Origin: Sorangium aterium
GTDB lineage: Bacteria; Myxococcota_A; Polyangia; Polyangiales; Polyangiaceae
Reading direction: 5' to 3'
NCBI RefSeq assembly: GCF_028368935.1
Contig: NZ_JAQNDK010000002.1
Coordinates: 2,356,001-2,420,000 of the forward strand
Length of the DNA stretch: 64,000 bases
Shown here: piece after piece, positions 18,749 through 34,987 of the stretch
Layout: each line of letters starts with the position of its first letter
Position numbering within the stretch: the first letter of the stretch is position 1
Program-made: the position numbers and the translations under genes
Notes under the pieces: model-generated
The model's input: only the letters and a program-made list of their open reading frames with translations
Told to the model about the DNA's origin: nothing
Databases searched by the model: none

Positions 18749-18870
18749 GCCCCTTTGTGTGCGCCGGCCTGCGGATGCGCGCGTAAAAGCTCTTGGAGAC
18801 CGGTGAAGGCCCACCAGGCATGGGCCTTCACCGAGCTTCGCGCCGCGTTCTCCTACCTCCAAACATGAAC

Positions 18871-19086
<216 letters not shown>

Positions 19087-20485: not shown

Positions 20486-21145
20486 CTACTCGGGCTGGAC
20501 GAAGCGCCTCCACGCGTCTTCGCGCTGCGCCTCTTCAGCCTGCTCGTGTTCGCCGCAGTCGATCCTCAGGTGTCGGCCCGCCATCGGCGCGTCGACGAAA
20601 GCACAGTGGTGGGGCAGCGCCCCTTCATGCGCGTTCGGCCGGAAGTACTTGCAGGTGACGCACATGCGGCTCACCGGGATATGCCCGCTGAGCTGCAAGG
20701 AACGGATGATCTTCACGACCCCAGCCAGGAAGGCCTCTTGCTCCAGCGTCGAGAGCGCGCCCACCGCGGACACGATGGCGTCGGGCAGCGTCGTCACTTT
20801 CTGCGCGAGCGCGCGCCCCTGCGGCGTGAGCTCGATCAGGCTCGCCCGCGGGTGGCGCGGGTCCGGGCGCTTGACGACAGCTCCCTTGTCCACGAGCGCT
20901 CGGACCGATTCGCTGATGGTCGCCAGGGTGACGCCCAGGCGCTGCGAGAGCTCGCTCCCGCTGAGCGGCCCCTCCAGCGAGAGCGTCGCGAGGATCTGCC
21001 CCTGCGTCGGCGACAGGCCCTCGTGGTTCGCCTGCTCCCACGCCTGCAGCTTCATCGCGAGCCCCAGCTTCCGAAGCCCTACCGCGATGCGCCGATCGAT
21101 CGGCTCGGAGTTCTCCTCGAAGAAGAGCGGGAGCGAGCGACCCAT
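20486..21145 (-). CDS. MarR family regulator with C-terminal four-Cys domain
   Basis: About 219 residues. The winged helix is clear (LSPTQGQILATLSLEGPLSG, LGVTLATISESVRALVDKGA, PDPRHPRASLIELTPQG). The last 55 residues hold four Cys and several His (RMCVTCKYFRPNAHEGALPH, HCAFVDAP, LRIDCGEHE), a likely Zn or Fe-S site not present in ordinary MarR proteins. A perfect TTGACA -35 and a TTAAAT -10 upstream place the transcript start near 21146, so the ATG at 21145 is preferred over the in-frame ATG at 21154. The perfect palindrome between those boxes is presumably its own operator. Confidence 0.88.
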   Translation of the reverse strand: MGRSLPLFFEENSEPIDRRIAVGLRKLGLAMKLQAWEQANHEGLSPTQGQILATLSLEGPLSGSELSQRLGVTLATISESVRALVDKGAVVKRPDPRHPRASLIELTPQGRALAQKVTTLPDAIVSAVGALSTLEQEAFLAGVVKIIRSLQLSGHIPVSRMCVTCKYFRPNAHEGALPHHCAFVDAPMAGRHLRIDCGEHEQAEEAQREDAWRRFVQPE

Positions 21146-21152
21146 GACCCTC

Positions 21153-21180
21153 ATTTAACTTAGGAGTCCTAAGTTGTCAA
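21153..21180 (-). promoter_or_regulatory. Predicted promoter of the MarR gene
   Basis: On the minus strand TTGACA (21180-21175) and TTAAAT (21158-21153) are 16 bases apart. The predicted start of transcription is about 21146, next to the ATG at 21145. The spacer is filled by the MarR-type palindrome. Confidence 0.55.
21157..21175. promoter_or_regulatory. Perfect 19-bp palindromic operator, MarR type
   Basis: AACTTAGGAGTCCTAAGTT is an exact inverted repeat (two 9-base arms around one G). Its position between the -35 and -10 of the MarR gene is classical for autorepression. It also lies upstream of the divergent CHAT operon, so it could influence both directions. Confidence 0.8.
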
Positions 21181-21333
21181 GGGTGGCCCGCGGTGAGCCG
21201 CGCCGGGTCGCCGAGGACCGGGCGAACGCTCGTCCAGCACGAGGTCGAAGGCCACGGCCCCCGAACTGGACCCATCGGCTCGCACGGCCGCGCGACGTCC
21301 CCCTGTGGACCCGATCGACCGCTGGAAGCGGGC

Positions 21334-22491
21334 ATGGAGGAGCGCGCGCTCCTGCGGCAGCCTGCCGAGGTCATCCGGCGTGATCGTCGGAGATCGGAGG
21401 CGGCGCGCGGCACGCCGCCCGACGTGCGCTCATCCAACGAGCTCATGGCAGGACCGGAGCCAGCGAAGCCGTTCAGGGGAGCCATCCGGACCTCGGTGTC
21501 GACATCGACGGACGGGCTGGTCGCAGGACAGGAGTTCTCCCTCTTCGTCACGGTGCAGAACCCGTTCGAGGCGCCGCTCTCGCTGTGCCGCGTGAGCACG
21601 AGCCTGCCCGCCGAGCTCATCGATGTCGACCGGCAGTGGACAGAGCAGCGGATCGAGAGGCTCGAGGACCGACTCGCCGTGATCGAGGGCGCCGCGCGGG
21701 CGCTCGCGCCGGGCGGCGACTCCCTGGGCTCGCGGCTGCGCCGCGCCGTCCGGCGGCTGCTGCGGCGCCGCCCGCCCGGGCGCGGCGAGGCGCCGAGGGC
21801 GCCCGCGATCGCGCGCGATCTCCGCGGAGCAGGCGGCGAGGCCGCGCTCGCGGCGCTCCACCCGCCGCTCCGGCACAGCGCGGGCCTCCGGGGCCGGGGA
21901 CCCACGGCGGGCGCGTGGAGCGAGGACGGCGAGGAGGGGAGCACCTCGCCCGAGGGGCTCCTCGGCGACGACGCAGGCGCGGTCCGGGACGCCATCCTGT
22001 CGTCGGGGGCCCCGGATCCTCCCACGGTGCTCCAGGCCGGGAACTCGACGGCGCGGAGCTTCACCGTGCGATCGCGGCGCACGCTGTGGTTCCGCACCGC
22101 GTCGTACCGGTTGCTCATCGAGGTCGAGTACGAGATCGACGGCGCGAGCAACGTCGACACCATCGAGCACGTCCTCAAGGTGAGCTCGTCGCTGGCGAGC
22201 ATGATCTGCGGCGCCGTGCTCGGGGGCGTCGGGGGCTGGTTCGCCGCGCGGGGCGGCGCCGCGCCGCTCGACGTGGAGACCGGCTTCAGCCTCGCCGTGT
22301 CGCTCGTCCTGGTCGTGATGGCGGTCGTCCTGCTCGCGCGCAAGAGGGACGTGCAGCCCATCGTCGCGATCGAGGATTTCTGGGGCGGTGTCGCCGTCGG
22401 GTTCTTGATCGCCTATTCAGGACCGAGGCTCTTCGCGGGGCTCTTCGGTCTGCCCGCGCCGGCGCAGCCCGCGTCGAGCGCCCTCATCTGA
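21334..22491 (+). CDS. Membrane-anchored protein, first gene of the CHAT protease operon
   Basis: About 385 residues from the ATG at 21334. An internal ATG at 21445 is an alternative start and neither has a strong ribosome site. The N-terminal part (VSTSTDGLVAGQEFSLFVTV, QNPFEAPLSL, SLPAELIDVD) looks like an Ig-type beta domain. A basic Arg/Ala/Gly-rich disordered stretch follows, then a second beta segment (SRRTLWFRTASYRLLIEVEY). Three hydrophobic helices close the protein at about residues 287-305, 318-336 and 352-373. I do not recognise a family. Its position at the head of the operon suggests it anchors or senses for the downstream proteases at the inner membrane. Confidence 0.72.
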   Translation: MEERALLRQPAEVIRRDRRRSEAARGTPPDVRSSNELMAGPEPAKPFRGAIRTSVSTSTDGLVAGQEFSLFVTVQNPFEAPLSLCRVSTSLPAELIDVDRQWTEQRIERLEDRLAVIEGAARALAPGGDSLGSRLRRAVRRLLRRRPPGRGEAPRAPAIARDLRGAGGEAALAALHPPLRHSAGLRGRGPTAGAWSEDGEEGSTSPEGLLGDDAGAVRDAILSSGAPDPPTVLQAGNSTARSFTVRSRRTLWFRTASYRLLIEVEYEIDGASNVDTIEHVLKVSSSLASMICGAVLGGVGGWFAARGGAAPLDVETGFSLAVSLVLVVMAVVLLARKRDVQPIVAIEDFWGGVAVGFLIAYSGPRLFAGLFGLPAPAQPASSALI

Positions 22492-22596
22492 CAGCGATGC
22501 TGCCGAGCTCGCGCGACGCCGGGAGAGTCGGGAGAACGGAAGCGCAGGCTTTACATCCCGCCCTGCGCCGTTAAGCACGCATGGAGAGGAGGGGCC

Positions 22597-23976
22597 GTGT
22601 CCACTCTGCGTGCCAGGGCGACCGCCGAGCTCCAGTGTCGGATCGACGTGCTCCCGCGCGACGTCGCGCGGTTCGAGGCGGCCGCCGCGGCGAACACGCG
22701 AGGTTTCGGGATCCACAAGAGCCAGGTGCTGGCGCTGAAGATCCTCATGAACGAGCTGATCCAGCGCCAGAGAGGCATCCTGGAGCGGCTCGGAGCGGAC
22801 CTGTCCGACGCCGACTTCGCGGATGGCTTCGGCAAGCTCCTCGTCGAGATCGCGGGCGCGCACGGGGTGTGGAACATCTTTTCTCAGACGCTCGCGCAGC
22901 GGGAGCAGCCGGCGCTCGCCCCCCCGCTCGACGCGGCCGACCTCGTGGCCGCCGAGTGTTACCAGGCGTGCATGAACACGGCGCGCAACTGGGGCCTCGT
23001 CCCCCGCGAGGGGATGCGCGAGCCGCCGCTGGTCTGCCTGGAGGCGCACTACGGGCCGGTCGCCGTGAGCCGCCAGAACCCGCTCCGCGCCCTCCGCAGC
23101 TCGCTCCGGAGCTACCGCGACCTCCGGCTGCCGATACCGATCGTGCTCCTGCCGGCCGATCAGACCGAGTGCGCCTGGCTCCTTGTCATGCTCTGCCACG
23201 AGGTCGGCCACAACGTCGATCAGGATCTGGCGCTCTCGAGCGAGCTGACCAGGGCGCTGCTCCTCGGCACCGACGGGGAGATCCCGTCCGACCGGCAGGA
23301 GATCTGGTTCGGCTGGACCCGGGAGATCCTCGCCGACGCGATCGGTGTCCTCCTCGGCAACGCCGGCTTCGCGCTGGCGCTCGCGTCGCTGCAACTCGTG
23401 CTCGCGCCCGGGAGCCAGCAAGGCGAGCTTGACCGGCGCGATCCTCACCCGCACCCGATGATCCGCGTCCCGCTGCTCGCCGCGCTGCTGCGGCGGCTCG
23501 GGGTCGCGGCGCTCGCCGGCGCGGCCGACCAGATAGAGCAGGACTGGCGGGCGCTGCCCGCGCCGGCCTGGGTCGCGCCGTTCCTCGGCGACCTCGGCGC
23601 GATCGCGGGCACGTTCCTGGAGAGGAAGCTGGACGCGCTCGGCGGTCGCGCGCTCAGGGAGCTCCACCCGGACGTCGCGGCCGACGTGAAGCGGGCAGAC
23701 GCGCTCGCGCGCTTTCTCAGGAGCGGTGAGCTCCGCCCGGCGCCGGACAAACCCTCATATTTCCCCTACCGCCTCGTGCCGGTCGCGGCGCAGCTCGTGG
23801 TCGCCTCGGCGCCGTCTCCGGTCGAGCTCGGCGCCGTCCAGCGGCGATCAATGGAGTTCTTCGCGGCGATCCCGCGGCCGCCGATGCTGGCGGGCGCGGC
23901 GTCGCTGTCCCCGCAGCGCGCCGCGTCCTATGCGCGGATCGCGCGGTCGGTCGACTTCGCTGGAGATGGCGGATGA
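22597..23976 (+). CDS. Zincin-like HEVGH metalloprotease-type protein
   Basis: A 459-residue protein with GTG start 4 bases after GGAGGGG. The only family motif I see is LLVMLCHEVGHNVDQD (His201, Glu202, His205). It is followed about 40 residues later by WTREILADAIGVLLG, where Glu243 or Asp247 is placed to be the third zinc ligand, as in gluzincins. There is no signal peptide, so it should act in the cytoplasm. The rest is alpha-helical and unrecognised. Its stop codon overlaps the next gene (ATGA), so it is translationally coupled to the degenerate CHAT protein. Confidence 0.75.
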   Translation: MSTLRARATAELQCRIDVLPRDVARFEAAAAANTRGFGIHKSQVLALKILMNELIQRQRGILERLGADLSDADFADGFGKLLVEIAGAHGVWNIFSQTLAQREQPALAPPLDAADLVAAECYQACMNTARNWGLVPREGMREPPLVCLEAHYGPVAVSRQNPLRALRSSLRSYRDLRLPIPIVLLPADQTECAWLLVMLCHEVGHNVDQDLALSSELTRALLLGTDGEIPSDRQEIWFGWTREILADAIGVLLGNAGFALALASLQLVLAPGSQQGELDRRDPHPHPMIRVPLLAALLRRLGVAALAGAADQIEQDWRALPAPAWVAPFLGDLGAIAGTFLERKLDALGGRALRELHPDVAADVKRADALARFLRSGELRPAPDKPSYFPYRLVPVAAQLVVASAPSPVELGAVQRRSMEFFAAIPRPPMLAGAASLSPQRAASYARIARSVDFAGDGG

Positions 23977-25361
23977 CCACGAGGCCGAGCGCGCAGCTCT
24001 CTCGAACTCCAGAGATCCTCGTCCGCATCGCCCCGGTCCGCCCCGCGGAGCCGGTCACGCCGCGCGCGACCGGCCGCCGCGTGTGCCGGCGCTATCACGC
24101 GTGGATCTACACGAAGCTCGATATCTCCTCTCTGCTGCTCGGGGACCCCGGCGCGGTCGAGCCGGGCGGCGCGTCGCCGCTGCCCGAGATGGCGGGGCTG
24201 CCGCTCATCGGCCATGAAGAGATCTCCGTCACCTGGCTCAGCTACGCCGAGTATCTGAGCATGTTTTACGAGGGCGAGGAGGCCCTGCTCGAGCTGCGGC
24301 GCCGCCTCATCGGGTCGATCTCCCGCGGGCTCCGGGCGATCCTGCGGCTCCGGCCGCACGCGCCCCGGCGGCTGCGCATCTGGTGGTCGACCGAAACGCC
24401 CGAGCTCGACGAGCTTCCCTGGGAGATCCTCCTCCACGGCGAGCACCGCCCGCCGCGCCTCTCGATCGTGCGGGGGATCCCGGGGCGGGTCGTGCCGCCG
24501 CTCTCCCTGCGGGAGGGACAGCCGCTGCGCGTCGCCGTGGTCGACCCGACCGGCGGCGCGCCCGCCTCGCTCTCCGAGGCGCTGGAGGGCCTGGGCTCCG
24601 GCATCGAGGTCGCCTGGATCGAGGAGGACGACGCGCGCAAAGCGCTCTCCGCGGCGATCCAGGCGGGATTCGAGGTGATCCACGTGGTGGCCGACGGCAT
24701 GGTGCCGCTCGGCCTGGAGGGCCTCCTCGAGTTCTCGGGGGACGAGGACGACACGCTCTCCTCCCTGGAGCTCACTGCCATGCTGCGCGGGTCGAGCGCC
24801 ACGATCCTCTCGCTCACCCCGCCGGAGACTCCCCGCGTGGGCCACGGCGGCATGCCCGCCGTGTACCACGCGTTCGCGCACTTCGGCCATCAAAGCGGCG
24901 ATGGCCCCACGATCGCCGCCCAGCTCGGCCCCATGCATCCACGCGTGTACCGCGAGTTCTGGCGCGCGTTCTACGAGCGGCTCGCGGCGTCGCTCGACGT
25001 GGAGGACGCGATGATGGCGGCGTCGCAGCGCCCCCTCCTGACGCCCGTCGTTCTGTTCCTCCGGCACCGCTTCGGCCGGCAGTTCACCCGGCAGGGCGAC
25101 GACGCGCGGCGCTCTCCCACGTGGCCGACGCTCGGCGCGGGGCAGACCCCGGAGGGCGACGTGCCGCTCACGCCGGCGCAGGTGACCGCCGATCTCTCGT
25201 GCTCCCGCGACCTGCTCGACGCGGCGAAGACGCTGGAGGCCCGCTACGCGGCGCTCGGGCTCGAGTTCCCGGGCAAGGGCCTCATCGAGCGCGAGGGCCA
25301 GCGGCAGGCCGCCCTCGATGAGGCGCTCGATCAATCCCTGTCCGAGGACACGGAGCCATGA
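23973..25361 (+). CDS. Degenerate CHAT-domain protein (predicted inactive)
   Basis: A 462-residue protein. The CHAT fold is recognisable from ELDELPWEILLHGEH (residues 144-158), LRVAVVDPTGG and GFEVIHVVADGMV. The catalytic His expected before the Gly of that last motif is Asp241, and the Cys expected in the LSxC motif is Thr282 (ATILSLTPPETP). Both dyad residues are therefore missing. The N-terminal 130 residues are unrecognised. It overlaps both neighbours by ATGA. By analogy with paired active/inactive proteases, it may be a regulatory or scaffolding subunit for the intact CHAT protein that follows; this is inference. Confidence 0.78.
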   Translation: MTTRPSAQLSRTPEILVRIAPVRPAEPVTPRATGRRVCRRYHAWIYTKLDISSLLLGDPGAVEPGGASPLPEMAGLPLIGHEEISVTWLSYAEYLSMFYEGEEALLELRRRLIGSISRGLRAILRLRPHAPRRLRIWWSTETPELDELPWEILLHGEHRPPRLSIVRGIPGRVVPPLSLREGQPLRVAVVDPTGGAPASLSEALEGLGSGIEVAWIEEDDARKALSAAIQAGFEVIHVVADGMVPLGLEGLLEFSGDEDDTLSSLELTAMLRGSSATILSLTPPETPRVGHGGMPAVYHAFAHFGHQSGDGPTIAAQLGPMHPRVYREFWRAFYERLAASLDVEDAMMAASQRPLLTPVVLFLRHRFGRQFTRQGDDARRSPTWPTLGAGQTPEGDVPLTPAQVTADLSCSRDLLDAAKTLEARYAALGLEFPGKGLIEREGQRQAALDEALDQSLSEDTEP

Positions 25362-27082
25362 GAAACCCCGAGTTCGTTGTCGACATCGAGCCTGGCGGGG
25401 GCTCGCGCCTGCGGCTGTGCGTCCACGCCAGCCACCTCGCGCCCATCGATGACGAGCTCGAACGACCCTTTCCGAGCTTCCCGCCCGCGGAGCTCGACGA
25501 GCTGCGGAGCGGCTACGGGTCGGAGCAGATGACCGAGTCCCTGGCCGAGCAGGTCACCGGCTGGCTGCTCCAGAACGATCTCCGCGGCCACCTGGGCACC
25601 GCGGTGAACGCGGCGACTCAGCCCTTCCGGATCGTCTTCCGGCCGCACCCGGCGGTGCTTCCGTACCTGCACGACGTCCCCTTCGAGCTGCTCAAGCTCG
25701 ACGCCGACCGGCTCGCGCTGCACCCCTTGGTACGGGGGATCGTCCACTCGTACAAGCGCCACCGCGGGGTGGCCGCGCCGCCGGCGCTGCGCTGGAGCTG
25801 GCCTTTCCGCGTGCTCTTCGTCCGCACGAACCCGAAGGACCTCGGCGGGGACGTGCCGCCCGTGCTGCCCATCCGCGATCGCGTCGTCGCGATCGCGCGC
25901 GGGTGCGGGCTCGCCGACGTCGTGGAGGTCGCGGTGCTGAGCAGCGAGGCGGGCGCAGGCGGGCCCGTCACCTACGATGCCTTCCGCGCCGAGCTGCGCA
26001 ACGTGCGCTACGATCTCCTCGTTTACCTGGGGCACGGCGACCTCCAGGAGGTCGGGTTCGAGGGGTTGCCCCCGATCGGCGTCCTCCTGTTCGAGCTCGA
26101 CGGCAGCGACTTCGCCAACCCGATCCGCGCCGATCAGCTCCGGAGCGAGCTCCTGAACCGGCCCGTGCCGGTCGTGGTGCTCGCGGGCTGCATGACCGCG
26201 GCGGGCGAGGTGCTGCGCGAGCGGCTGCCGCAGTGGATGCGCGGCAACCAGAACGTGGCGCACTCGCTGATCCACGGCGAGTCCGGCGTCCAGTGCGCGA
26301 TCGGGATGCGTCACCGGCTGGAGGCGGCGGACGCCGAGCGCTTCCTCCAGGCGTTCGTCCTCAGCCTGCTCAAGCAGTGCCCGGGCGACGTCGAACGGGC
26401 CGTGCGGGCGGGACGCGAGGAGATGTTCGCGCAGAAGCCGTACCCGCCCAGCTGGTCGGCGCCCGTCCTCTTCCGCGCGGCGAACGTGGAGCCGCTGTTC
26501 GACTTCCTGTGCACCGCGCCGACCGCGTTCGACCCGCTCGACGAGCACGACCAGGCGCTGCGGGAGAAGTTCTGGAAGAAGCGGAGCGAGCTGCCGGCCG
26601 CGCTGCCCCCGGAGACCCGACATTTCTCGAGCTTACTGCTCGATACGGTGGAATCAACGTTCCTCGACCGCAGGCGGCAGGGGGGGGCCACCCTGGTGTG
26701 GCCCGCGCGGAACGAGGCGAAGCCCGGCGATACCGTGAAGGTGTCTGTCCAGCTCATGGAGTCGGTCTCCGTGTCGCGCCTGGAAGGACGGCTGTCCTTC
26801 GCCGAGGCGATCACGGTGCGGGCAGCCCGGCCGGCGTCGGGGCTCAAGGCTGCGGGGCTGCGCGCGTTCTTCGCCCTGGATCAACCGGGCGAGGTGCGGT
26901 TCGTCGCGTCCGCCCCTTCCGGAGAGCCGGTGACGCTCGGCGCTGGTCCGCTGTTCGAGGTCGACCTGACGCTGCCCGGCGCGTTCCCCGCCGTGTACGA
27001 GTTGCGGGTTGACGCGCTCGCATCCGAACCGAGGTTGTTCATGTGCGGCTGGAACAATGCGATCGTTGTGCCGCTGCCATGA
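25358..27082 (+). CDS. CHAT-domain cysteine protease with C-terminal Ig/cohesin-like domain
   Basis: A 574-residue protein. The caspase-like CHAT domain has both catalytic residues: His226 in YDLLVYLGHGDLQ and Cys278 in VVVLAGCMTAAGE. Other CHAT features are the upstream LHDVPFELLKLD (family LPWELL position) and the exposed-loop segment VAHSLIHGESGVQCAIGMRH with RFLQAFVLSLL. Residues from about 430 onward form an all-beta domain (KPGDTVKVSVQLMESVSVSR, LEGRLSFAEAITV) similar to cohesin/Ig modules. CHAT proteases are clan CD enzymes that usually cut a specific partner after activation. The next two genes are the natural substrate candidates. Confidence 0.88.
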   Translation: MRNPEFVVDIEPGGGSRLRLCVHASHLAPIDDELERPFPSFPPAELDELRSGYGSEQMTESLAEQVTGWLLQNDLRGHLGTAVNAATQPFRIVFRPHPAVLPYLHDVPFELLKLDADRLALHPLVRGIVHSYKRHRGVAAPPALRWSWPFRVLFVRTNPKDLGGDVPPVLPIRDRVVAIARGCGLADVVEVAVLSSEAGAGGPVTYDAFRAELRNVRYDLLVYLGHGDLQEVGFEGLPPIGVLLFELDGSDFANPIRADQLRSELLNRPVPVVVLAGCMTAAGEVLRERLPQWMRGNQNVAHSLIHGESGVQCAIGMRHRLEAADAERFLQAFVLSLLKQCPGDVERAVRAGREEMFAQKPYPPSWSAPVLFRAANVEPLFDFLCTAPTAFDPLDEHDQALREKFWKKRSELPAALPPETRHFSSLLLDTVESTFLDRRRQGGATLVWPARNEAKPGDTVKVSVQLMESVSVSRLEGRLSFAEAITVRAARPASGLKAAGLRAFFALDQPGEVRFVASAPSGEPVTLGAGPLFEVDLTLPGAFPAVYELRVDALASEPRLFMCGWNNAIVVPLP

Positions 27083-27100
27083 GGCCGCGCCGGGGTCGAT

Positions 27101-27490
27101 ATGAAAGCGATCAAGCCGGAGGAGCCGACGCAACCCTCGTTGCTGGAGGCTCACCCCGAGCTGCGGGCGCTCCTTGACCGGTCCGAGCTCTTCCGCCGTA
27201 CCGAGGAGCGCTATCGCATCGAGATCGAAGGTCAAACGCTCTACCTCGTGCGGGGGGACACGCTCGGCTCGCGCGAGGAGCTGCTCATCGACGCGCTCGT
27301 CCGCGGCTCCGCGCCCGAGAGCGCCGACCCGCTCAGCCGCGCGCTCTTCCTTGAGCTGCCCGGACACCTTCAGGAGGTGATCCGCGGTCTCACGCGATCG
27401 GAACCACAACCGTCACCCAAGAGCCCGGGTGCTCCGGGCCAAGGAGAATCGCCATGGCCATCACCGATCCGGCCATCGCGCAGAAGGTAG
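27101..27490 (+). CDS. Small protein sharing a motif with the downstream metalloprotease
   Basis: A 129-residue soluble protein, 18 bases after the CHAT gene and overlapping the next gene by 37 bases. Residues 36-66 (ERYRIEIEGQTLYLVRGDTL, then GSREELLIDAL) align with residues 20-47 of the metalloprotease (TFELDGKLMYVAEGDLLLEE). The shared pattern is a hydrophobic-acidic-Gly turn, then Tyr, Gly-Asp and a Glu-rich helix. The C-terminus is Pro/Ser/Arg-rich. No known family is recognised. A role as inhibitor, adaptor or cleaved substrate is suggested only by the shared motif and location. Confidence 0.7.
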   Translation: MKAIKPEEPTQPSLLEAHPELRALLDRSELFRRTEERYRIEIEGQTLYLVRGDTLGSREELLIDALVRGSAPESADPLSRALFLELPGHLQEVIRGLTRSEPQPSPKSPGAPGQGESPWPSPIRPSRRR

Positions 27491-28254
27491 GGGAGCTCAA
27501 GACGAGGCTCCCCACGTTCGAGCTCGATGGGAAGCTGATGTATGTCGCGGAGGGCGACCTCCTGCTGGAAGAGGAGCAGCTCGCCGACTACGTGCCTCAC
27601 GCCGCCAACGTGGAGCCGCCCAACCTGGACGCCGGCCCCGGAGGGGAGGGGCTGGTCGGCATCCTGCAGGACGGCAGGCCGCTGCGCTGGCGTCCGGGGT
27701 TCGTGATCACGTACTGCGTGCTCAGGGCGACCTTCCGGGACGAGCGCCAGTACGCGACGGTGCGCGCCAACATGCTGACGGCCACGCGCGACTGGGAGGA
27801 GACCTGCGGCGTGTCGTTCCGCCACGTGGCCGAGCTCGACGGGAGCACGAGCCGCCCCGCGGAGGTCGTGTTCCCGGTGCGGCTCAACCTCTCCGGCGGG
27901 GCTTTCATCGCCGCGTCCTTCTTCCCGAACGACCCGGTCGGGAGAAGGCAGCTCCTGATCAATCCCTCCTATTTCTCGCCCTCGCTCGGGTTCAACCCCG
28001 TCGGCGTGCTCCGGCACGAGCTGGGTCACGTCCTCGGCTTCCGGCATGAGCACATCCGGAGCGGCGCTCCGCCCGCCTGCCCCCGGGAGGACATGTCGCA
28101 GACCATCGACCTCACGGCCTACGATCCCAGGTCGGTGATGCACTATTTCTGCGGCGGCGTGGGGAACCCCGAGCTCGAGATCACCGAGGTCGACGTGCAG
28201 GGGTCGCAGCGGGTATACGGCATGCCGCTCTCCAGCTTCCGCCTGGTGGCTTGA
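27454..28254 (+). CDS. Astacin-like metzincin metalloprotease
   Basis: A 266-residue protein with AAGGAG before the ATG. The extended zinc motif LRHELGHVLGFRHEHIR gives His188, Glu189, His192 and His198 followed by Glu199, as in astacins. The Met-turn is PRSVMHYF (Met229, Tyr231). There is no signal peptide. The first 50 residues carry the motif shared with the upstream small protein and may be a propeptide or docking segment. The catalytic core starts near FVITYCVLRATFRDERQY. A cytoplasmic astacin-like enzyme would need to be held inactive, which fits control by the preceding CHAT protease; this is inference. Confidence 0.87.
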   Translation: MAITDPAIAQKVGELKTRLPTFELDGKLMYVAEGDLLLEEEQLADYVPHAANVEPPNLDAGPGGEGLVGILQDGRPLRWRPGFVITYCVLRATFRDERQYATVRANMLTATRDWEETCGVSFRHVAELDGSTSRPAEVVFPVRLNLSGGAFIAASFFPNDPVGRRQLLINPSYFSPSLGFNPVGVLRHELGHVLGFRHEHIRSGAPPACPREDMSQTIDLTAYDPRSVMHYFCGGVGNPELEITEVDVQGSQRVYGMPLSSFRLVA

Positions 28255-28519: not shown

Positions 28520-34264
<5,745 letters not shown>

Positions 34265-34409
34265 GGTCCCTCCGGTCGCGGCCGCCTCGCGTGGCAGTTG
34301 CGGGCGAAACGTCCTCATCCGGATCGATGTCGCCGGCGCAGCGAGTCCGGCGGTCGAGCTTGCCCCGCGCCGCGGAGAGAGCTCGATGAGGTGGCCGGCC
34401 CGGCTCTGG

Positions 34410-34478
34410 GGCAGCCAGCCGCGCTGCCCTATCGCTTCTTCTTCGGGCAGCCAACCTCGCTGCCCATCGCTTCTTCTA
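34410..34478. repeat. Two-copy 33-bp direct repeat
   Basis: GGCAGCCAGCCGCGCTGCCC followed by TATCGCTTCTTCTT is repeated as GGCAGCCAACCTCGCTGCCC followed by ATCGCTTCTTCT. It lies upstream of the copy 1 kinase start and is read antisense to it. Confidence 0.7.
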
Positions 34479-34987
34479 TAGAGTCGTCTCCGCCCCTCGT
34501 CCGGCACAAGCGTGTACCCAGCGCACCTCGCGGCGCGCGTGCCGCCAGCCGCCCTGCCGGACGAGCATGGCATCAAGCCAGCTGGCGAAGGGAGCGAATG
34601 CAGAGGGCGCTCTGGAGCAGAGGGCGCCTGGGACAGAACGCGCGCGGCGCAGCGCAGCGGGCGCTCCGGCCTGGCCTTGTGGCGTCAGCCGCTGCAGGAC
34701 TGGGCCGCTCGGCGTGCCCTGCCCGGTCCCGCTTCGCTCTTGCCTCGTGCGCTGCCGGCCTCGCCTCGCCGCCGTGCGTGCGACGACGGGGCTCTTCTTC
34801 GTCGCCGGCCTGACCCTCGGCGCGCAGGGCCGCGCCGAGGCCCCGAGGCTCGATCGAGGCGGTCGCCGGCGCCGGAGGGCAGGGGGCGAACCCGGACGTG
34901 CTGGGCTCCGGCGGAGACGACGGGGAGTCGCCGGGATTTCCGCCGTGAGGGCGTAGGGCGGCGCGAGAGGGGAGGCGGAACGGGGAT

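What the first reader, a model, noticed from the sequence alone, without database searches (positions are those of the whole stretch)
21334..28254. Six-gene operon combining active and inactive CHAT proteases with two different metalloproteases
Overlapping or closely spaced plus-strand genes encode a membrane-anchored protein, an HEVGH zincin, a CHAT homologue with both catalytic residues lost (Asp241, Thr282), an intact CHAT protease (His226, Cys278), a 129-residue protein and a cytoplasmic astacin-like enzyme. ATGA overlaps join the HEVGH, inactive CHAT and active CHAT genes. CHAT proteases in known bacterial systems cut a partner encoded next door. Here the partner could be the small protein or the N-terminus of the metzincin, giving a three-protease cascade. 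I know of no described system with this composition.
Basis: partly seen in the sequence, partly recalled or inferred. Interest (0 to 1): 0.9.

Follow-up and report, generated by a model that had tools for sequence, protein, structure and literature searches.

The report
Conserved bacterial four-protease switch operon
A soil bacterium of the genus Sorangium carries a compact, conserved gene cluster that packs four protease-like proteins (one of them with its active site lost) and a stand-alone copy of a protease 'safety catch', which looks like a built-in protein-cutting relay inside the cell resembling those used in cell suicide and immunity.

Summary
Genes g1-g6 are where stated, with the stated residues. 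The cluster g2-g6 (gluzincin, dead CHAT, live CHAT, small protein, metzincin) recurs in five Polyangiaceae genomes. The CHAT and metzincin orthologues occur in exactly the same five of 108 family genomes. Catalytic residues are invariant, and so are the replaced ones (Asp for His, Ser/Thr for Cys). g1 is not conserved beyond one relative. New findings: (1) the metzincin N-terminus is the prodomain, with a [V/A]xGD motif, of its secreted relatives, kept without a signal peptide. (2) The 129-aa protein is a free-standing copy of that prodomain element, and in one strain it is fused in frame to the metzincin. (3) The gluzincin-CHAT pair recurs in a Chloroflexota genome with an EAD7 adaptor and a cytosolic trypsin-like zymogen in place of the metzincin; distant gluzincin homologues neighbour S8, TIR/SLOG, patatin or phosphoesterase genes. 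Best reading: an intracellular proteolytic switch. A dead/live CHAT pair plus gluzincin release a latent executioner metzincin, with g5 as extra latch or decoy. Cleavage, trigger and function (defence, suicide) are untested. It works like CHAT cascades (Craspase, SAVED-CHAT/PCaspase) but is not a member of those systems.

The parts
21334..22491 (+). g1: protein with a soluble N-terminal part and about three hydrophobic segments near residues 287-362 (true start may be downstream, e.g. 21445); accessory, not conserved core
   Evidence: no family; hydropathy; found only in So0008-312
22597..23976 (+). g2: 459-aa soluble gluzincin-like metallopeptidase (GTG start), CHEVGHxxD ... ExxAD ... HPxxR
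   Evidence: invariant H201,E202,H205,E243,D247 also in Chloroflexota; no Pfam/NCBIfam family; model pTM 0.82, weak match to Zmp1 Z 6.0
23197..23211 (+). g2 HEVGH zinc-binding motif
   Evidence: invariant
23973..25361 (+). g3: CHAT-fold pseudoprotease; Asp241 in place of His, Thr282 (Ser in two orthologues) in place of Cys; ATGA overlap with g2
24693..24695 (+). g3 Asp241 (HxxADG), invariant
24816..24818 (+). g3 Thr282 at the Cys position
25358..27082 (+). g4: CHAT protease (residues about 62-372) with C-terminal cohesin-like (Ig-type) domain; ATGA overlap with g3
   Evidence: (cohesin match weak, E 0.03-0.12)
26033..26035 (+). g4 catalytic His226 (YLGHG)
   Evidence: invariant incl. Chloroflexota
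26189..26191 (+). g4 catalytic Cys278
27101..27490 (+). g5: 129-aa free-standing prodomain-like protein; overlaps g6 by 37 nt
27242..27259 (+). g5 YLVRGD motif (residues 48-53; V50, R51, G52, D53 invariant in four orthologues)
27454..28254 (+). g6: signal-peptide-less astacin/MMP-like metzincin with N-terminal prodomain
27541..27558 (+). g6 prodomain motif YVAEGD (residues 30-35; Y30, A32, E33, G34, D35 invariant)
28015..28053 (+). g6 HELGHVLGFRHEH zinc-binding motif
28132..28146 (+). g6 SVMHY Met-turn (astacin type)

Best explanation
The cluster encodes an intracellular proteolytic switch. Shown from sequence: a conserved co-directional unit of a gluzincin (g2), a pseudo-CHAT (g3), an active CHAT protease (g4), a free-standing prodomain-like protein (g5) and a latent-looking metzincin (g6). 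Inferred: g3 and g4, made from overlapping genes, form a regulatory/catalytic CHAT pair, as the fused pseudo-caspase/caspase domains of Csx29 do. On an unknown signal the pair, helped or gated by the gluzincin g2, cuts the prodomain of g6 and/or removes g5. That withdraws an aspartate-switch-like latch from the zinc and frees the metzincin to cut cellular proteins as the executioner. g5 adds a second latch or a decoy that raises the threshold. The executioner slot is exchangeable: a trypsin-like zymogen sits there in Chloroflexota. The most likely role is cell suicide or defence.
For: Synteny and co-occurrence: g4 orthologues in 5 of 145 relatives and g6 orthologues (>=56% identity) in exactly the same 5; all within one cluster. 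The close g4 CHAT type (E < 1e-100) was found in no genome without g2, in 400 Chloroflexota and 379 Myxococcota searched. Catalytic residues of g2, g4 and g6 and the substituted g3 residues are conserved. Latency: seven signal-peptide-bearing relatives of g6 carry Y/F-[ILV]-V-x-[GW]-D 143-150 residues before HExxH; g6 keeps it at about 150 without a signal peptide. Animal astacins use an FXGDI Asp as zinc-blocking switch (PMC9848320). g5 aligns to that prodomain (score 32.2; best of 200 column shuffles 15.8), is found only in this operon, and is fused in frame to g6 in So0008-312. Exchangeable zymogen: the Anaerolineae locus has CHAT-EAD7, g2 (37% identity) and a signal-peptide-less IVGG trypsin. 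Precedent: Csx29 has pseudo-CHAT plus CHAT and makes a single cut in a co-encoded protein (PMC10028731).
Against: No cleavage, binding or phenotype was or could be tested. The strict FXGDI motif is not met (AEGDL), and the one characterised bacterial astacin zymogen uses a Cys switch instead. The g6 model was too poor (pLDDT 51) to see whether Asp35 reaches the zinc. So ce26 lacks g5, so g5 is dispensable. Homology of g5 to the prodomain covers only about 22 residues. No PADLOC defence model hits any of the six proteins, and no sensor or nucleotide-binding domain was found in the Sorangium cluster. The Chloroflexota case is one MAG contig of 5.3 kb, cut inside the trypsin gene.
Confidence: 0.47

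Rival explanations
1. The gluzincin g2, not the CHAT pair, is the core initiator; CHAT and the metzincin are both downstream, exchangeable effectors recruited by g2.
For: g2-family proteins have the widest range and change partners: patatin in G736, S8 plus CHAT-AAA in G080, fused metallophosphoesterase beside TIR/SLOG/S8 in L061 and beside FGE-sulfatase in L057.
Against: Several of these homologues are distant (26-35% over part of the protein) and may have another role. In the close set g2 never occurs without CHAT except in G736. In Minicystis g2 sits at the far end of the cluster.
Confidence: 0.2
2. g5 is a precursor of a signalling or toxic peptide, and the peptidases mature it; the metzincin is one of the processing enzymes rather than an executioner.
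For: Zincin plus small precursor gene pairs exist in conflict systems (FxSxx-COOH peptide processing, PMC7159879). g5 is small and adjacent.
Against: Four g5 orthologues are conserved in their middle, not in a C-terminal peptide. g5 is homologous to the g6 prodomain, is fused to g6 in one strain and is absent in So ce26.
Confidence: 0.12
3. The metzincin is exported by a non-classical route and used outside (predation or nutrition); the CHAT and gluzincin genes serve its maturation.
For: Most relatives of g6 in these predatory bacteria are secreted lipoprotein-like enzymes.
Against: g6 has no signal peptide in any of five orthologues. CHAT proteases act in the cytoplasm in all characterised cases known to me. 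The Chloroflexota trypsin likewise lacks a signal peptide.
Confidence: 0.1
4. The cluster is a set of unrelated housekeeping peptidases brought together by chance or common expression, without a relay.
For: Only that no interaction has been measured.
Against: Identical five-genome distribution of g4 and g6 (1 in about 1e8 by random draw, phylogeny ignored), ATGA coupling, conserved pseudo-active site, recurrence of the g2-CHAT pair in another phylum.
Confidence: 0.05

Closest known systems
Craspase / type III-E TPR-CHAT (Csx29), PMC10028731
   Same: Pseudo-CHAT plus active CHAT unit with His/Cys dyad; specific cut of a co-encoded protein
   Different: Here the two CHATs are separate overlapping genes; no TPR or gRAMP was found in g1-g6, and no Cas gene was sought further; the candidate substrate is a zymogen metalloprotease rather than an anti-sigma factor
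Type III-B SAVED-CHAT / PCaspase cascade of Haliangium ochraceum (Steens et al. 2024, known to me and cited in PMC11417357; paper not held)
   Same: CHAT protease thought to start a relay that activates a second protease; also a myxobacterium
   Different: No SAVED domain in g1-g6; the second protease is a metzincin, with an added gluzincin and a free prodomain
System 3 of Kaur et al. 2020, multiple peptidases coupled to NucA (PMC7159879)
   Same: Multi-peptidase operon predicted to be a proteolytic cascade in bacteria with multicellular habit; EAD adaptors in some members
   Different: Trypsin/subtilisin plus NucA core there; CHAT, pseudo-CHAT, gluzincin and metzincin here, no nuclease
Astacin / MMP metzincin zymogens with aspartate or cysteine switch (PMC9848320)
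   Same: HExxHxxGxxHExxR, SxMHY Met-turn, xGD motif in the prodomain
   Different: Signal peptide lost, cytoplasmic; strict FXGDI absent; extra free-standing prodomain-like gene

Membership tests
CHAT peptidases (PF12770), g4 | Pfam CHAT match above curated cut-off | tested here: met
   48.0 bits vs 24
CHAT peptidases (PF12770), g4 | His/Cys catalytic dyad | tested here: met
   His226 and Cys278 invariant in six orthologues incl. Chloroflexota
CHAT peptidases (PF12770), g3 | Pfam CHAT match above curated cut-off | tested here: met
   27.1 bits vs 24; 28.8 for the fragment
CHAT peptidases (PF12770), g3 | His/Cys catalytic dyad | tested here: not met
   Asp and Thr/Ser at these positions in all five orthologues
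Astacins (M12A), g6 | HEXXHXXGXXHE and SxMHY Met-turn | tested here: met
   HELGHVLGFRHEHIR, SVMHY invariant; astacin model 25.5 vs cut-off 22.5; best solved relatives tolloid/BMP1, E 2.2e-5
Astacins (M12A), g6 | EXXRXDRD continuation after the zinc motif | tested here: not met
   HEHIR[ST]GAPP follows instead; M10 scores better than astacin, so M10/M12A placement is open
Astacins (M12A), g6 | FXGDI aspartate-switch prodomain | tested here: inconclusive
   AEGDL/VxGD variant at a conserved distance; Asp-zinc contact not testable because the model was poor
Astacins (M12A), g6 | Signal peptide for secretion | tested here: not met
   Hydrophilic N-terminus; no such segment in g6, unlike relatives
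Gluzincins (M48/M13-like), g2 | HEXXH plus downstream ExxxD | tested here: met
   HEVGH...ExxAD invariant
Gluzincins (M48/M13-like), g2 | Match to a curated M48/M13 model or clear fold match | tested here: inconclusive
   No Pfam/NCBIfam/PDB sequence hit; VIA Z 6.0 to Zmp1, 5.1 to ZMPSTE24, below the stated reliable range
SAVED-CHAT type III CRISPR cascade | SAVED sensor domain in the CHAT protein | tested here: not met
   No such Pfam match in g1-g6 at E<=1
Craspase | TPR-CHAT bound to gRAMP/Cas7-11 | tested here: not met
   No TPR or Cas domain in g1-g6
Kaur et al. System 3 | NucA-type nuclease plus trypsin-like peptidase core | tested here: not met
   Neither domain in the cluster
EAD-linked conflict systems | EAD adaptor on a component | tested here: not met
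   No EAD in Sorangium g1-g6; EAD7 present on the Chloroflexota CHAT (38.1 vs 32 bits) and on 13 other proteins of that genome

The most novel reading that the evidence does not exclude
A previously undescribed class of bacterial intracellular protease relay built on a gluzincin family that no curated library names, paired with a CHAT/pseudo-CHAT unit. Its executioner is a cytoplasmic zymogen (metzincin or trypsin) held by a prodomain latch that is also supplied as a separate protein in trans. This would be a bacterial counterpart of caspase and zymogen cascades.
Probability: 0.38. Interest if true: 0.82.

Novelty: new variant of a known kind. Interest (0 to 1): 0.64.

Why it matters
If the relay is real it adds a metalloprotease zymogen executioner and a trans-acting prodomain to the parts list of bacterial protease cascades. 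It links CHAT proteases to an uncatalogued gluzincin family that turns up beside TIR, SLOG, STAND, patatin, subtilisin and phosphoesterase genes, a mix typical of immunity and cell-death systems. It can be tested directly with five small genes in a laboratory host.

Tried and rejected
(a) g1 as a core member: rejected, found only in one close relative. (b) Known defence system: no PADLOC model hits. (c) AlphaFold model of g6 to check Asp35-zinc: failed, pLDDT 51 with four sequences; not searched. (d) PDB relatives of g2 by sequence: none; Foldseek: no E<=0.001; VIA-align Z 6.0 Zmp1, suggestive only. (e) PDB relatives of g3/g4 by sequence: none. (f) A second dead CHAT in G080 (L059 C-terminus of the STAND-TPR protein) looked likely by eye but Pfam does not confirm it, so it is not used. 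(g) Free-standing g5 homologues elsewhere: none credible in 108 family genomes. (h) dN/dS (NG86) is below 1 for all genes tested (0.36-0.62), but strong GC bias makes the values rough. (i) Supporting full text of Steens et al. 2024 is not held.

Full report
What is there. The window lies in a 13.5-Mb Sorangium genome (G000; same genus as S. cellulosum So ce26). Flanking genes are on the other strand: a MarR-like regulator (20486-21154) and a very long Ser/Thr kinase-WD40 gene (28520-34576).

Conservation. The g4 CHAT has orthologues in 5 of 145 relatives; g6 orthologues (56-83% identity) occur in exactly the same five of 108 family genomes, all other g6 hits being 46% or less over the catalytic domain, apart from short fragments. 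In all five they sit in one cluster: So0008-312 has g1-g6 (L006/L052); So ce26 has g2, g3, g4, g6 (L007/L053); G060 has g2-g6 plus a calcineurin-like phosphoesterase 'g7' (L008); Minicystis rosea has g3, g4, g5, g6, g7, g2 (L009/L054). The g3/g4 ATGA overlap is present in all five. A close relative, G004, has the same MarR gene at 95% identity but its alignment to the window stops at 21207, just before g1, and other genes follow: the cluster sits at a variable place and is patchily distributed.

Active and dead sites. g2 CHEVGHxxD plus ExxAD, g4 YLGHG/GC, g6 HELGHVLGFRHEH plus SVMHY are invariant. In g3 the His is Asp and the Cys is Thr or Ser in every orthologue. Conservation of a dead site over 43-81% identity argues for a selected regulatory role. 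In Csx29 a pseudo-caspase CHAT1 precedes the active CHAT2 (PMC10028731); here the order pseudo-then-active is the same but the genes are split and overlap.

The prodomain link. Seven secreted relatives of g6 carry a Y/F-[ILV]-V-x-[GW]-D motif 143-150 residues before HExxH, and g6 keeps the same element without a signal peptide. Animal astacins block the zinc with the Asp of an FXGDI prodomain motif (PMC9848320); the motif here is a variant of it, so an aspartate switch is a reasoned inference, not a demonstration. g5 alone against g6 gives a weak match (E 0.0008). Against the joint prodomain profile it gives E 1.4e-5, score 32.2, while 200 column-shuffled profiles reach at most 15.8 and 43 windows of the other operon proteins at most 16.0. 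g5 was not found outside these operons. In So0008-312 g5 and g6 form one open reading frame of 392 codons (a draft contig, so a sequencing indel cannot be excluded).

The pair in another phylum. An Anaerolineae MAG contig (L055) encodes a g4-type CHAT (40% identity over the CHAT part, dyad intact) ending in an EAD7 adaptor (38.1 bits, cut-off 32), divergently beside a g2 orthologue (37%), closely followed by a trypsin-like protease with an IVGG start and no signal peptide, cut by the contig end. Fourteen proteins of that genome carry EAD7 above cut-off. In 400 Chloroflexota and 379 Myxococcota genomes no close g4 CHAT occurs without g2.

Distant g2 relatives. G736 (Chloroflexota) has g2 followed by a patatin phospholipase. 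G080 has a subtilase, a CHAT-AAA protein, a STAND-like NTPase and a g2-like zincin in a row. L061 has a phosphoesterase-zincin fusion, TIR-SLOG protein and subtilase; L057 a phosphoesterase-zincin fusion beside an FGE-sulfatase gene; L060 a phosphoesterase-zincin region. This mix is typical of conflict systems (PMC7159879, PMC8195603), which is the main reason for preferring a suicide or defence role. It is indirect.

g2 itself. No library names it. Its model is fair (pTM 0.82) and its two best metallopeptidase matches are gluzincins, Zmp1 (Z 6.0) and ZMPSTE24 (Z 5.1), within the range where chance matches occur.

How it probably works. Shown: composition, conservation, latency-type motif, shared prodomain element, exchange of the effector for another zymogen-type protease in one case. 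Inferred: CHAT pair activated by an unknown signal, cut of g6 prodomain and/or g5, executioner release, g5 as a threshold. Unknown: trigger, order of g2 and g4, targets.

Compared with the known. It works like CHAT-initiated cascades (Craspase; SAVED-CHAT/PCaspase) and like the predicted multi-peptidase System 3 (PMC7159879), but fails their defining features (no SAVED, TPR-gRAMP or NucA). I found no paper with this composition, in a library that lacks most subscription journals. It is filed as a new variant of a known kind.

Noticed in passing
L061:6791-13797 (G195), L057:3-3308, L060: Metallophosphoesterase fused to (or continuous with) a g2-like zincin, next to TIR-SLOG and subtilase genes (L061) or an FGE-sulfatase gene (L057): a possible separate conflict system.
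   Followed up: partly
L059:1-9986 (G080): Operon-like row of subtilase, CHAT-AAA protein, STAND-like NTPase with TPR-like part and peptidoglycan-binding domain, and g2-like zincin in the same family of bacteria.
   Followed up: partly
L074:8860-11730 (G736): g2 orthologue directly followed by a patatin-like phospholipase, in a Chloroflexota genome.
   Followed up: partly
G475 (Anaerolineae MAG), many contigs: Fourteen EAD7-bearing proteins above cut-off, suggesting an adaptor network that includes the CHAT of L055.
   Followed up: partly
L006:5155-6330: g5 and g6 are one in-frame ORF in So0008-312; a natural fusion or a one-base assembly error.
   Followed up: partly
L007:10351-14457 and L006:6389-7279: Ser/Thr kinase (in So ce26 with cyclase, AAA and TPR parts) directly downstream of g6 on the same strand in two Sorangium strains; a regulator may belong to the cluster there.
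   Followed up: partly
window 28520-34576 (-): 2018-aa Ser/Thr kinase with long WD40-like repeat array; close DNA relatives in many copies in other Sorangium genomes.
   Followed up: no
window 18828-19076 (-): Low-complexity GTG-rich stretch that reads as poly-Val or SWSWSLTW repeats.
   Followed up: no
window 21207 versus G004:C1 about 3636657: Synteny with G004 (93-95% DNA identity) ends just before g1; the cluster is absent there.
   Followed up: yes
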